Below, piece by piece: positions 14,425-63,107 of a stretch of DNA of 64,000 nt. The DNA comes from Pseudodesulfovibrio hydrargyri (GTDB taxonomy: Bacteria > Desulfobacterota > Desulfovibrionia > Desulfovibrionales > Desulfovibrionaceae): NCBI RefSeq assembly GCF_001874525.1, contig NZ_LKAQ01000001.1:62001-126000 (forward strand), given 5' to 3'. Made by a program: the position numbers and the translations under genes. The notes beneath the pieces are model-generated. The model saw only the letters and a program-made list of their open reading frames with translations, searched no databases and was not told the origin of the DNA. The stretch's first letter is position 1. Each line of letters starts with the position of its first letter.

Positions 14425-14540
14425 TGCCTCCGGCGGCCGGGGGAAGGGAAAAGGGAACCCCTTTGTAAAGGGCTTTCCCTTTCCCCTTCCACCGAACCCA
14501 CATCTCCCTTCCCTTCCAAAAGTTTTGTTGCTGCTTCGCA
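14425..14540. repeat. Dispersed intergenic repeat, copy A (one-ended)
   Basis: Begins TGCCTCCGGCGGCC, the same 14 bases as the left ends at 22399 and 57429. It is followed by G/A-rich and C/T-rich stretches that pair around 14440-14487, and contains AAAAGTTTTGTTGC...CTTCGC near 14516-14540, the internal block shared with the other copies. A matching right end is not visible. Confidence 0.75.
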
Positions 14541-14633
14541 GGTGAGGGACGCGGTGGGCCTTGCTTTTCTTCGCCGACTTTTCCGTAAGGCAATTAATGA
14601 GGAAAGTTCGGGGCAGCGTTGCGGCTTCCAGAG

Positions 14634-22398: not shown

Positions 22399-22654
22399 TG
22401 CCTCCGGCGGCCGGGGCGCTGCCCCGGACCCCGCTTAAGAACCTCTTGAAAGAGGTTCTTAAAAATCTCCAGAACTTTTTGTTGCCGCTTCGCGAAATGC
22501 ACACGAAGCCGGCCTGCCCTGCCTCTCCTCCTTTCTCTTAAGTAACCACGCATATCCGAAGGCGAAATCGCACAACTCCCCCGCATCCTGCCCCACGCGA
22601 ATGCGTATACAAAAAGTTTACGAAAGGAGGAGGGGAGTGGGGGCCGGGGCAATA
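22399..22654. repeat. Dispersed intergenic repeat, copy B
   Basis: Left end TGCCTCCGGCGGCC at 22399-22412. Then a 12-bp hairpin TTAAGAACCTCT / AGAGGTTCTTAA (22435-22462), the block AACTTTTTGTTGCCGCTTCG at 22473-22492, and the opposing block ATACAAAAAGTTT near 22607-22619. The right terminal repeat is eroded to a G/C-rich stretch. Fills almost the entire spacer between the cyclic-di-GMP gene and ettA. Confidence 0.8.
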
Positions 22655-56936: not shown

Positions 56937-57422
56937 ATGTCCGCATCGCATCCCCTCGACAAGCTGGCCCTCGCCGTGGCCACCCTCGGCCCGGTGGGCC
57001 ATTTTCCCAAAGCCCCCGGCACATGGGGCTCCCTGGCCGCCACCGTGGCCGCGCCCTCGCTATTCCTGACCCTGCCCCTGCCCTGGCGTGCCGCCGTGCT
57101 CGTGGGCGTCTTCCTCCTCGGCACCTGGGCCTGTGACCGGGCCGAAACCGTCATGGGCGAAAAGGACCCCGGCTGCGTGGTCGTGGACGAACTCTTCGGC
57201 CAATGGCTCACCCTGTTGTTCTACCAAGCCATGCCCCTATGGTATCTGGCCGCCGCCTTCGCCCTGTTCCGCGTCTTCGACATCCTCAAGCCCTGGCCCG
57301 TCAAATGGGCCGAAACAGCCTTTCCCGGCGGCTTCGGCGTCATGATCGACGACGGCGTGGCCGGACTCTACGCCATGGGCTGCCTGCATCTCCTTGCCTA
57401 CCTCGTTTCCGTAATCGGGTAA
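56937..57422 (+). CDS. pgpA: Phosphatidylglycerophosphatase A
   Basis: 161 residues with four hydrophobic segments. Family motifs: GHFPKAPGTWGSL at the start, DPGCVVVDELFGQW near residue 76 (with the catalytic acidic residues) and FDILKPWPVKWAE. It dephosphorylates phosphatidylglycerophosphate to phosphatidylglycerol in the inner membrane. Repeat copy C begins just after its stop. Confidence 0.93.
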   Translation: MSASHPLDKLALAVATLGPVGHFPKAPGTWGSLAATVAAPSLFLTLPLPWRAAVLVGVFLLGTWACDRAETVMGEKDPGCVVVDELFGQWLTLLFYQAMPLWYLAAAFALFRVFDILKPWPVKWAETAFPGGFGVMIDDGVAGLYAMGCLHLLAYLVSVIG

Positions 57423-57428
57423 AAGAAA

Positions 57429-57696
57429 TGCCTCCGGCGGCCGGGCGTCTCCGACGGCCAGAGAACCTTTTGTTGCCGCTTCGCGGGGAGCGCACACTAC
57501 TGTCCGCCGCGCTTCTCCGCTCACCGAGGTTTCGATTCCGCGCATGTAGGGGAAAAGCAATACTTCGTTCCTCCTAACGCCTCACGCGCATATGCGCATA
57601 CAAAAAGTTTCGGAAGGAAAAGGGGATGAGGGGCCAGGGGAAGGAAAGCCCTTTTCAAAGGTTTTCCTTTCCCCCTTCCCCTGGCCGCCGGAGGCA
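57429..57696. repeat. Dispersed intergenic repeat, copy C, with perfect 14-bp terminal inverted repeats
   Basis: TGCCTCCGGCGGCC (57429-57442) and its exact complement GGCCGCCGGAGGCA (57683-57696) bound a 268-bp unit without coding potential. Inside are ACCTTTTGTTGCCGCTTCGC (57466-57485), the opposing ATACAAAAAGTTTC (57598-57611), and a strong purine/pyrimidine hairpin near the right end. It fills the gap between pgpA and the tol-pal terminator. Two relatives are at 14425 and 22399. Confidence 0.85.
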
Positions 57697-57700
57697 AAAT

Positions 57701-57732
57701 AAAAACGCCGCTCATATGAGCGGCGTTTTTTT
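57701..57732. terminator. Bidirectional terminator between pgpA and pal
   Basis: AAAAACGCCGCTC / GAGCGGCGTTTTT, a 12-bp or longer stem with a 4-base loop. Confidence 0.9.
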
Positions 57733-57755: not shown

Positions 57756-58313
57756 CTATTTGACCACGAATTCGTCGCGGCGGTTCTTGGCCCAGGCGGT
57801 CTCGTTGTGGCCGGGGTCCACGGGATATTCTTCGCCGAAGCTGACGATCTTCATGCGTTCCGGTTCCACGCCGAGGATGACCAGGTGCTCGTAGGCGGCG
57901 CGGGCACGGCGCTCGCCGAGGGCGAGGTTGTATTCCTCAGTACCGCGCTCGTCGCAATGGCCTTCGATGACCACGTTGACGCCGTCGAACTTGCGCAGGA
58001 TGGTGGCCTTCTGGGCCAGGACGGAACGGGCTTCGTCACTGAGTTCATAGGAATTGAAGGCGAAGTGGATGGTCACGCTGGTCAGTTCCTGGACGGCCTC
58101 GGCCTTGGCCCGGGCCTGCGCCTCGGCGGCCAAGGTGGCTTCATCTACACCAGACTCCTGCTGCGGCGGAGTCCACTTGGTGTTGCTATCGTCCTGGACT
58201 CCGACCGAACCTTCGGTCGGCTCCGTGGTTGTGGATTTCTTTGCACAGCCGGCAAAGAGAAGAAGGGACACGGCCATGAGGGCCACCATTCCAACATACC
58301 ATTTGATTTTCAT
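57756..58313 (-). CDS. pal: Peptidoglycan-associated lipoprotein Pal
   Basis: 185 residues with lipoprotein signal (LLLFAGC; Cys near residue 23). A linker is followed by the OmpA-like domain (TIHFAFNSYELSDEARSVL, VVIEGHCDERGTEEYNLALG, RRARAAYEHLV). It links the outer membrane to peptidoglycan and interacts with TolB during constriction. The ATG at 58313 follows AAGGAG. Last gene of the tol-pal cluster. Confidence 0.95.
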   Translation of the reverse strand: MKIKWYVGMVALMAVSLLLFAGCAKKSTTTEPTEGSVGVQDDSNTKWTPPQQESGVDEATLAAEAQARAKAEAVQELTSVTIHFAFNSYELSDEARSVLAQKATILRKFDGVNVVIEGHCDERGTEEYNLALGERRARAAYEHLVILGVEPERMKIVSFGEEYPVDPGHNETAWAKNRRDEFVVK

Positions 58314-58433
58314 GCTCACTCCTTGATAGAGCCGTCGCTCGGCTTTATTTACAGTAACCCGAGAGCGCTCGGTTTTCGCACATTTTACGGTGTACCTTTT
58401 CCCAGATAAAAATCAACCCTGATTATATGTCAA

Positions 58434-61961: not shown

Positions 61962-62612
61962 TCATTTCATGCACCGCTGCACGATTTCCCACGCATTGGC
62001 CTCGGTCTGCCGGTATTCGTCCACCGTCAGCCCCGCGCCCAGGGCGATGGTCCTGCGCAGATCCTCGCCCACCAGGTCGCGCGGGGCGTGGGCGTCGTTG
62101 TTGACCACGAGTTTCGCCCCGTGTTTGCGGGCCATGGCGGCCACGTGGCCGTTGGTGTAGCTGTGTCCGCCGCGCGTGGTGATCTCCAGGGCGACTCCCT
62201 TTTCCACGGCGAGCTTGACCTCCTCGTCGGTGATCAGGCCGGGATGGGCCAGGATGTCCACCCCCGCCTCGATGGCCGCCAGGTTGGTGCCGGGGGCCAC
62301 GGGCTCCACCGGCGTCTCGCCGTGCATGACCACCACCTGCGCTCCGGCGTCACGCGCGCTCTTGACCATCTCGGCGATGAGCGCGGGCGGCACGTGGGTC
62401 AGTTCGACCCCGGCCAGGACGTTGATGTCGAAGAAGTGCCCGTGTTTCTTGACGAAGCGAAGCACGTTTTCGAGGATGTGGTAGGTGGTCGCCTCGTCCG
62501 CGTGGTCGGTCATGCAGAGGGCCTTGTAGCCCAGCACTTCGGCCCGGCGGACGAGTTCGGCGGGGATCAGTTCCCCGTCGCTGAAAATGGTATGGGTGTG
62601 CAGATCGATCAT
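61962..62612 (-). CDS. PHP-domain metal-dependent phosphoesterase
   Basis: 216 residues from the ATG at 62612. The PHP motif HTHTIFSDG at residues 5-13 supplies metal ligands; CMTDHAD (about 37), VELTH, VMHGETP, LAHPGLIT and NNDAHAPRD provide the remaining His/Asp set. It resembles the histidinol-phosphatase-like PHP group (YcdX type). The substrate is not predictable. It starts 7 bases after the bifunctional-nuclease stop. Confidence 0.87.
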   Translation of the reverse strand: MIDLHTHTIFSDGELIPAELVRRAEVLGYKALCMTDHADEATTYHILENVLRFVKKHGHFFDINVLAGVELTHVPPALIAEMVKSARDAGAQVVVMHGETPVEPVAPGTNLAAIEAGVDILAHPGLITDEEVKLAVEKGVALEITTRGGHSYTNGHVAAMARKHGAKLVVNNDAHAPRDLVGEDLRRTIALGAGLTVDEYRQTEANAWEIVQRCMK

Positions 62613-62619
62613 GCGGGGC

Positions 62620-63107
62620 CTACATCTTGTATTTGATGTCGTCTTCTGAGAGCTTGTCCAATTCTTCCTGCCACTTGTCGGCGTTTTCCGTCTTGATGAC
62701 CGTTTCGGGATGATCCGGGAACGCGCCCCCGGCCTCATTGAGGACCGCCTCGCCCGCGAAGATGGGGCATTCGGCGCGCACGGCCAGGGCAATGGCGTCC
62801 GACGGGCGGCTGTCCAGGCGCAGGGTCTCCTCCTTGGCCGAGACCACGATCTCGGCGAAGAAGGTCCCGTTCTCGATGTCGGTGATCTCCACGCGATTGA
62901 CGGTGCCGCCCAGGGAGCGGACGGCGTTGAGCAGCAGATCGTGGGTCATGGGCCGGGGGAACGGCACCTTGTTGATGGCCATGGATATGGCCATGGCCTC
63001 CATGGCCCCGATCCAGATGGGCAGGACCCTGGTCTCTTCCTCGTCCTTGAGGACGATGATCGGAGACTTGCCCGCCTCGTCCACCGCCAGTCCGAAAATT
63101 TCGACCT

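What the first reader, a model, noticed from the sequence alone, without database searches (positions are those of the whole stretch)
57429..57696. Intergenic element bounded by perfect 14-bp inverted repeats, related to two others in the window
Three intergenic gaps (starting 14425, 22399 and 57429) begin with the same 14 bases TGCCTCCGGCGGCC and share an internal block around TTTTGTTGCCGCTTCGC or close variants. Copies B and C also share the opposed ACAAAAAGTTT block. Copy C is closed by the exact reverse complement of its left end, giving a 268-bp unit without coding capacity. All three sit just downstream of a gene, before a terminator. This fits a non-autonomous mobile element or a structured palindromic repeat family. 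I see no target duplication and no transposase.
Basis: partly seen in the sequence, partly recalled or inferred. Interest (0 to 1): 0.7.

Follow-up and report, generated by a model that had tools for sequence, protein, structure and literature searches.

The report
Repeat family encoding DNA triple helices
The element is one copy of a large, mobile-looking, non-coding repeat family that sits just after genes and their terminators in Pseudodesulfovibrio, and its copies keep a three-strand match that fits a triple-helical DNA hairpin even as their sequences change.

Summary
TGCCTCCGGCGGCC starts three gaps of the window, copy C closes with its reverse complement, and the inner blocks are real. 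The genome (Pseudodesulfovibrio-like) has 188 such ends at <=1 mismatch, against 5 for the reversed pattern. All three window copies lie in convergent gaps. Orthologous gaps in relatives mostly lack the element, so these look like insertions; copy A was found in this genome only among 30 loci. They lack target duplications, and copy number does not follow Y1 transposases.

Each end starts a module: end motif, long hairpin (purine 5' arm, pyrimidine 3' arm), a short GGA-type turn, then a tract that is the PARALLEL complement of the 5' arm (mirror of the 3' arm). On the other strand this reads third strand-TCC-purine arm-pyrimidine arm, the layout of an intrastrand purine-motif DNA triplex. The tract follows the arm from copy to copy: 37 distinct distal arms match their own tract at 0.89 versus 0.58 permuted (0 of 5000); the antiparallel alternative is at chance.

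Closest known: E. coli BoxC/PIT/TM triplex repeats. New variant: class I order, longer stems, inverted pairs, gene-end insertion, covariation. Triplex formation and the mobilising enzyme are untested.

The parts
57429..57696 (.). copy C: two inverted modules, 268 bp, between the pgpA stop (57422) and the terminator on the pal side
57429..57442 (+). left end motif TGCCTCCGGCGGCC
57460..57472 (+). left module: remaining 5' arm AGAGAACCTTTTG; the 3' arm and third strand present in the G002 copy (L224) are absent here
57476..57486 (+). left mini-hairpin CCGCTTCGCGG, end of the shared inner block
57487..57585 (.). central part, little recovered in matches to other copies
   Evidence: listed matches cover mainly query 150-268, 36-67 and 1-44
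57586..57597 (-). right mini-hairpin GCGCATATGCGC
57600..57610 (-). opposed box ACAAAAAGTTT (AAACTTTTTGT on the module strand)
57612..57633 (-). right module: purine tract on the + strand = proposed third (reverse-Hoogsteen) strand
   Evidence: sequence; rule
57636..57682 (-). right module hairpin: on the + strand purine arm, loop, pyrimidine arm (purine arm shortened in this copy)
57683..57696 (-). right end motif (reverse complement of the left end)
57701..57730 (.). bidirectional terminator-like hairpin of the pgpA/pal gap, also at empty sites; the element abuts its T-run
22399..22650 (.). copy B: left module with two hairpins (22413-22425, 22435-22462), box 22475-22493; right box 22609-22619 and purine tract, right end motif not found
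14425..14542 (+). copy A: one G-rich module (end 14425-14438, hairpin 14439-14493, third-strand tract 14497-14517, box and mini-hairpin to about 14542); no second end motif found
56937..57422 (+). pgpA-like gene (name by recall), upstream neighbour of copy C
57756..58319 (-). pal-like lipoprotein gene (name by recall), convergent neighbour of copy C

Best explanation
The finding is one copy of a large family of non-coding, non-autonomous intergenic elements found in this genus and in other genera of its family (f1; Desulfovibrionaceae by recall). Each element consists of one module or two inverted modules. A module carries a fixed end (GCCTCCGGCGGCC), a long R/Y hairpin, and next to it a third tract that mirrors the hairpin. 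On the strand reading third strand-TCC-R-Y, a single DNA strand can fold into a hairpin whose purine arm is bound in the major groove by the adjacent antiparallel purine tract (G.GC, A.AT, T.AT): a class I intrastrand purine-motif triplex. Shown: copy number, modular anatomy, position at gene 3' ends and directly after terminator T-runs, gaps without the element in relatives, and arm/third-strand covariation. Inferred: that the strand really folds as a triplex when single-stranded (replication, or supercoiling between convergent genes); that this fold is what selection keeps; and that an unidentified trans-acting enzyme moves the element, with the structured end as its substrate. Accumulation downstream of genes reflects targeting of, or tolerance at, 3' ends and terminators.
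For: Copies: 188 ends vs 5 control; inner box 77 vs 1. Insertion: of 30 loci at the pgpA-pal site (C), 3 hold full elements (own, G002, G032), 3 module-like or decayed sequence (L223, L226, L227; L223 and L227 judged by eye), 21 a 53-125 bp gap with a terminator and no end motif, 3 are otherwise (L225, L230, L242). Copy A site: 1 of 30 loci with an end motif (L430 cut off, not assessable; those without the partner gene read for 450 nt only); G002 has a 79-bp gap. Copy B site: 6 of 30 with an end motif. Position: 109 element gaps are 47 convergent/56 tandem/6 divergent versus 25/101/36 element-free gaps in the same loci (p = 6e-7 convergent, 1e-4 divergent). Of 127 ends, 32 lie <=15 nt from a terminator T-run (21 at 0-1 nt) versus 8 of 1425 random positions in the same loci; 73 lie <=40 nt after a stop codon of a frame of 60 or more codons reading toward them, without a control. 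Third strand: 102 own modules score 24.5 as parallel complement, 17.3 as direct copy, 16.8 shuffled; parallel > direct in 90, equal in 10, less in 2. 59 distinct combinations: 0.882 vs 0.727 permuted, 0/5000. 97 modules of other genus genomes: 25.1 vs 17.2 direct, 14.0 shuffled, 17.9 swapped; parallel > direct in 85, equal in 6, less in 6. 270 pairs differing by one arm base: tract differs at that column in 57% vs 22% at other columns; 28 of 43 arm pairs have a matched change. Distal part: 0.888 vs 0.581 permuted, antiparallel 0.526 vs 0.515.
Against: No triplex was measured, and the tools cannot model one. About 13-15% of tract positions do not follow the code, and single arm substitutions are sometimes not followed (L180, L141). 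Module by module the signal is moderate: 53 of 102 own scores exceed all 50 shuffles, and 1468 of 10002 swapped comparisons score better than the own tract. The A-for-T degeneracy favouring the purine over the pyrimidine motif rests on few positions outside the shared AT (20 A vs 59 C; at G positions 3 A vs 69 T). Loop-side parts of the arms contain C/T, where no canonical triplet is possible. Holder et al. report a stable triplex for the E. coli motif in vitro but no support for stable formation in vivo, and cite no in vivo effect of PIT elements. Modules are related, so permutation numbers overstate independence. Random control positions for the terminator test were not restricted to gaps. 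No transposase was found; loss could explain some empty sites.
Confidence: 0.6

Rival explanations
1. An ordinary MITE/REP-like palindromic repeat; the mirror tract is a by-product of a G/A-rich composition and has no function.
For: Multi-copy, inverted ends, hairpins, intergenic, sites without the element.
Against: Composition alone gives the permuted and shuffled values; own tracts exceed them in the own genome and in other genomes, and one-base neighbours show matched changes. No TSD, and no link with Y1_Tnp.
Confidence: 0.2
2. The tract competes by Watson-Crick pairing with the hairpin (an attenuator-like RNA switch in 3' UTRs).
For: GGGGGAAGGGG is itself nearly mirror-symmetric, so its first part can pair antiparallel with the tract; the minimum-energy DNA fold of the copy C minus strand appears to use this. 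Many ends follow stop codons.
Against: In the distal, non-symmetric part antiparallel pairing is at chance (0.526 vs 0.515) while parallel is 0.846 vs 0.543.
Confidence: 0.07
3. A G-quadruplex/i-motif element.
For: G-rich modules have several runs of three or more G on the R strand.
Against: Short AGAGGGGAAACTTTT modules have too few G-runs yet show the mirror relation; a quadruplex needs neither the pyrimidine arm nor mirror covariation.
Confidence: 0.06
4. A functional 3' processing or transcription-blocking element between genes, vertically maintained rather than mobile.
For: Strong 3'-end location, convergent enrichment; element at the B and C sites in G002 too.
Against: Most orthologous gaps read lack it and copy A was found in this genome only; exact 13-nt ends range from 0 to 137 within the genus; the gaps have their own terminator.
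Confidence: 0.1

Closest known systems
BoxC / PIT elements / TM_ECO intrastrand triplex repeats of E. coli and other bacteria (Holder et al. 2015, PMC4666352; Hoyne and Maher as cited there)
   Same: Multi-copy intergenic repeat able, by sequence, to form an intrastrand purine-motif triplex with a 3-nt turn next to the third strand; palindromic pairs occur; no known mobile carrier (passages and sections).
   Different: TM_ECO is 37 nt, class II (Y-R-RH), of very high identity, 23 copies in MG1655; here RH-R-Y (class I), arms of about 11-28 nt, variable arms with matched third strands, conserved 14-nt ends, inverted pairs of 171-584 bp, positions at stop codons and terminators.
MITEs
   Same: Inverted ends, short, no coding capacity, many copies, sites without the element.
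   Different: No target duplication, no parent transposase found, copies with one recognised end common.
REP/BIME repeats with RAYT (Y1) transposases (recalled)
   Same: Singlets and inverted doublets in 3' intergenic regions, no target duplication.
   Different: Third strand; long stems; no association with Y1_Tnp.
Group IIC introns (recalled: insert just after terminators)
   Same: Position next to a terminator T-run.
   Different: Far too small; own genome has no RVT_1 hit.

Membership tests
Intrastrand triplex repeats (BoxC/PIT/TM kind) | three adjacent blocks R, Y and third strand in a class I-IV order | tested here: met
   RH-TCC-R-Y on one strand, covarying
Intrastrand triplex repeats (BoxC/PIT/TM kind) | intergenic, multi-copy | tested here: met
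   150 of 160 end sites in gaps, the other 10 in genes or at locus edges
BoxC/TM_ECO proper | pattern CCCTCNCCC-N3-6-GGGNGAGGG-N3-GGGNGAGGG (class II) | tested here: not met
   order and stems differ by direct reading of the modules; pattern from a passage of PMC4666352; no pattern search was run
Intrastrand triplex repeats (BoxC/PIT/TM kind) | triplex formation measured | not testable with these tools
   needs CD/NMR/footprinting
MITE | terminal inverted repeats | tested here: met
   36 doublets listed
MITE | target site duplication | tested here: not met
   1 of 36 with >=3 nt at the junction (0.2 expected), none of 5 or 6 nt within 3 nt
MITE | related autonomous element in the genome | tested here: inconclusive
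   no inverted pair of ends at transposase distance seen in the listed positions (list cut at 100 of 188)
REP/RAYT | Y1 transposase partner | tested here: not met
   one match in a 78-aa frame; no association across 36 genomes
REP/RAYT | GTAG-type tetranucleotide at the hairpin foot | not tested
   not examined

The most novel reading that the evidence does not exclude
Selection on these elements preserves an intrastrand purine-motif DNA triplex: third strand and hairpin arms co-evolve in many sub-types and in several genomes of one bacterial genus, and the triplex-capped end is the structure by which a mobile element replicates or transposes and settles next to terminators. That would be comparative-genomic (compensatory-change) evidence for a natural DNA triplex and a new kind of mobile-element end.
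Probability: 0.4. Interest if true: 0.85.

Novelty: new variant of a known kind. Interest (0 to 1): 0.63.

Why it matters
Whether natural DNA triplexes are formed and selected in cells is, to my knowledge (recall), an old open question. The E. coli motif is of very high identity (PMC4666352) and so can give little covariation. This family offers dozens of sequence variants in which the third strand can be compared with the stem, as compensatory changes are used for RNA helices. It also gives a set of sites with and without the element in related species, so that mobility, terminator targeting and polymerase arrest become testable in an environmental sulfate reducer.

Tried and rejected
RAYT/Y1 partner: not supported. 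Reverse transcriptase partner, suggested by the terminator-adjacent junctions: no RVT_1 hit in the own genome, 10 of 36 genus genomes have one, and G017, G007 and G027, rich in the end motif, have none; rejected. Target duplications: none beyond chance. Rfam: no hit on the elements (gathering threshold; the only window hit is a tRNA). Carriage on plasmids or phages: no match in either collection (query the 107-bp right part of copy C only). A direct-copy origin of the tract: rejected. Antiparallel switch: rejected for the distal part. An apparent + strand excess of ends on contig C4 in the list was discarded, because the list is cut at 100 of 188 places and lacks reverse-strand copies known from other calls. 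Literature: searches joining Desulfovibrio or Pseudodesulfovibrio with intergenic repeat, repetitive extragenic palindromic, transposable, triplex DNA listed 0, 3, 1 and 0 papers, none about this family by title and abstract start; three further searches were on triplex or terminator-adjacent repeats in general. The library lacks most subscription journals. Only PMC4666352 was opened (abstract and outline, passages, section 15 and the first part of section 20); its main text does not hold the word Desulfovibrio.

Rows dropped before counts: one search kept 107 of 157 end sites (masked bases or hairpin score <10 dropped) and one search used 102 of these; could anchor 71 of 102; one search kept 97 modules, including a few evidently unrelated hairpins (for example L283, L285, L288) left in; one search anchored 128 of the 199 modules (81 distinct combinations of sufficient length); one search used 76 distal combinations. 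One search used the 127 ends with an inner box and enough unique flank. The own-genome loci are a sample (window, 30 best-scoring BLAST hits, positions listed), not all 188 ends.

Full report
OBSERVATION. The window (G000:C1:62001-126000 of a 4.08-Mb, 5-contig assembly) comes from a Pseudodesulfovibrio-like bacterium: the three best named relatives of its Pal protein are Pseudodesulfovibrio MAGs. Genome-wide, TGCCTCCGGCGGCC with at most 1 mismatch occurs 188 times (103 forward, 85 reverse) against 5 for the reversed pattern; CTTTTTGTTGCCGCTTCGC with at most 3 mismatches 77 times against 1. Nucleotide search with copy C gave 132 matches with 40 of 190 candidates scored.

ANATOMY. Listing end sites (157, the middle of the printout cut) shows a recurring module: end TGCCTCCGGCGGCC; a hairpin with a long, often perfect stem (G-rich GGGGGAAGGGGAGAGGGAAA..., short AGAGGGGAAACTTTT..., GGGGCGC, TAAGAACC types); GGA or similar; a tract; AAACTTTTTG; a mini-hairpin such as CCGCTTCGCGG, TGCCTTCGGCA or GCGCATGCGC. 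Among 109 gaps with ends, 38 have an inverted pair and in 71 no second end was recognised; 36 listed doublets are 171-584 bp long; in 23 of 37 classified doublets a G-rich module faces a different type. Copy C is a doublet whose left module has lost its 3' arm and tract compared with the copy at the same place in genome G002 (L224), and whose right purine arm is shortened. Copy B and copy A have no second end motif.

A THIRD STRAND. The tract is not a copy of the 3' arm but its mirror image, that is, the parallel complement of the 5' arm: GGGGGAAGGGGAGGAAAAA goes with CCCCCATCCCCTCCTTTT, GGGGGAAGGGGAAGGAAAA with CCCCCATCCCCATCCTTT, and L334's rare AAGAGGAGAGGG with ATCTCCTCTCCC. Over 102 own modules (59 distinct 22-nt arms) the mean local score is 24.5 for parallel complement, 17.3 for a direct copy and 16.8 for shuffled tracts; parallel beats direct in 90, ties in 10, loses in 2; 53 of 102 exceed all 50 shuffles; against other arms the own arm wins 7599, ties 935, loses 1468. 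Ungapped and anchored, 59 distinct arm/tract combinations match at 0.882 against a permuted mean of 0.727 and maximum of 0.780 (0 of 5000); one per distinct arm (39) gives 0.871 against 0.713. In 97 modules from other genomes of the genus the scores are 25.1, 17.2 (direct), 14.0 (shuffled) and 17.9 (swapped); parallel is better than direct in 85, equal in 6, worse in 6. Among 270 pairs of combinations differing by one A/G change in the arm, the tract differs at that column in 57% and at other columns in 22%; 28 of 43 distinct arm pairs include a matched change. Because GGGGGAAGGGG is itself nearly mirror-symmetric, the distal part was tested alone: 37 distinct arms give 0.888 against 0.581 (sd 0.033) when permuted, while antiparallel complementarity is 0.526 against 0.515. 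A polymerase cannot copy in parallel orientation (established knowledge), so repeated mirror matching points to selection for it. Over 170 distinct modules of all types, the first 12 positions from the turn match the purine code at 9.67 against 8.12 swapped and 7.59 shuffled.

WHICH TRIPLEX. On the module strand the order is R, Y, Y (pyrimidine motif, class III in the naming of PMC4666352); on the other strand it is third strand-TCC-R-Y (purine motif, class I). Opposite arm G the tract is C 514, T 69, A 3, G 0; opposite arm A it is T 361, A 105, C 68, G 1. Much of the A comes from one shared AT; without it A is 20 and C 59, still relatively more A than at G positions (3 A, 69 T; p = 2e-4). A or T opposite A.T is what the purine motif permits, so this leans to class I DNA; it is not proof. 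PMC4666352 states that purine-motif triplexes do not form in RNA (passage), which would place the structure in DNA.

INSERTION SITES. Copy C lies between pgpA and pal. In 30 loci of the genus full elements are in this genome, G002 and G032; L223 (G027), L226 (G007) and L227 (G033) hold module-like or decayed sequence (L223 and L227 by eye); 21 have a 53-125 bp gap with a terminator and no end motif; L225 has a 225-bp gap without ends, L242 904 bp of other sequence, and L230 could not be measured (a stop inside the frame). Of nine named loci printed, L033, L034, L035, L037, L039 and L043 have a short gap, L032 and L042 longer gaps in which I saw no end motif, and L036 has no pgpA hit. Copy A: 1 of 30 loci has an end motif (L430 was cut off and could not be judged); G002 has a 79-bp gap with the terminator. 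Copy B: 6 of 30 with end motifs, including a full doublet in G002. In the own loci, gaps with elements are 47 convergent, 56 tandem and 6 divergent; gaps without are 25, 101 and 36 (Fisher p = 6e-7 and 1e-4). Of 127 ends, 32 have a terminator T-run within 15 nt (21 at 0-1 nt), against 8 of 1425 random positions of the same loci, which were not restricted to gaps; 73 lie within 40 nt of a stop codon of a long frame reading toward them, for which no control was made. The gene caller was a home-made codon-usage script. There is no target duplication beyond chance.

DISTRIBUTION. In the genus 35 of 36 genomes have exact GCCTCCGGCGGCC (4 to 137 hits where present; G030 has none), while 24 genomes of other families in the order have 0-4, controls 0-2. 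With the hairpin start added and 1 mismatch allowed, 128 of 297 genomes of the order match, in 35 of 55 genera, up to 282 per genome in genus g19, with controls of 0 or 1. Of 30 loci from other genera, by eye roughly 18 carry a shorter form, end + GC hairpin + GGA/GCA + C-run; the rest are cut off or unrelated. Those short tracts are compatible with the same layout but too uniform to test it, so the covariation is shown for one genus only. Plasmid and phage collections had no match.

WHAT IT IS. Best reading: a non-autonomous intergenic mobile element family whose modules encode an intrastrand DNA triplex. The kind is known: BoxC/PIT/TM repeats (PMC4666352; section 15 and part of section 20 read; passages). 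By that paper PIT elements block DNA polymerase in vitro but showed no effect in vivo and no promoter or terminator activity, and TM loci are unusually variable between E. coli strains. What differs here is the class, length, modular inverted architecture, junctions at gene ends, and the covariation. Not shown: triplex formation, effect on replication or transcription, and the enzyme. Y1 and reverse-transcriptase partners were looked for and not supported.

CHECK.

Noticed in passing
L003, L011, L014, L117, L167, L169, L183, L184, L185, L190: A second repeat family with core CACCGCAGCGTAGCCGTCTACGTGAGG or close, flanked in several copies by inverted arms that vary together (GGGCTTTCA/TGAAAGCCC, GGGCGCTGA/TCAGCGCCC); 10 hits at <=4 mismatches in the own loci read.
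   Followed up: partly
L133 (module at 2279, minus strand), L183, also L135, L139, L145: A smaller repeat starting ATCGCTGCTGTCG lies between hairpin arms of some modules (clear in L133), as if nested insertions use the hairpin; the pattern had 20 hits at <=2 mismatches, many of them probably chance.
   Followed up: partly
window 62104-62620: The fourth convergent gap over 150 bp in the window (515 bp by the script) carries no end motif at <=2 mismatches.
   Followed up: no
G000:C4:72301-72450 (L031): Single Y1_Tnp match in a 78-aa open frame, covering part of the family profile, perhaps a remnant.
   Followed up: no
G003:C16:12411-12504: Four GCCTCCGGCGGCC hits every 27 bp in another genome of the genus.
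   Followed up: no
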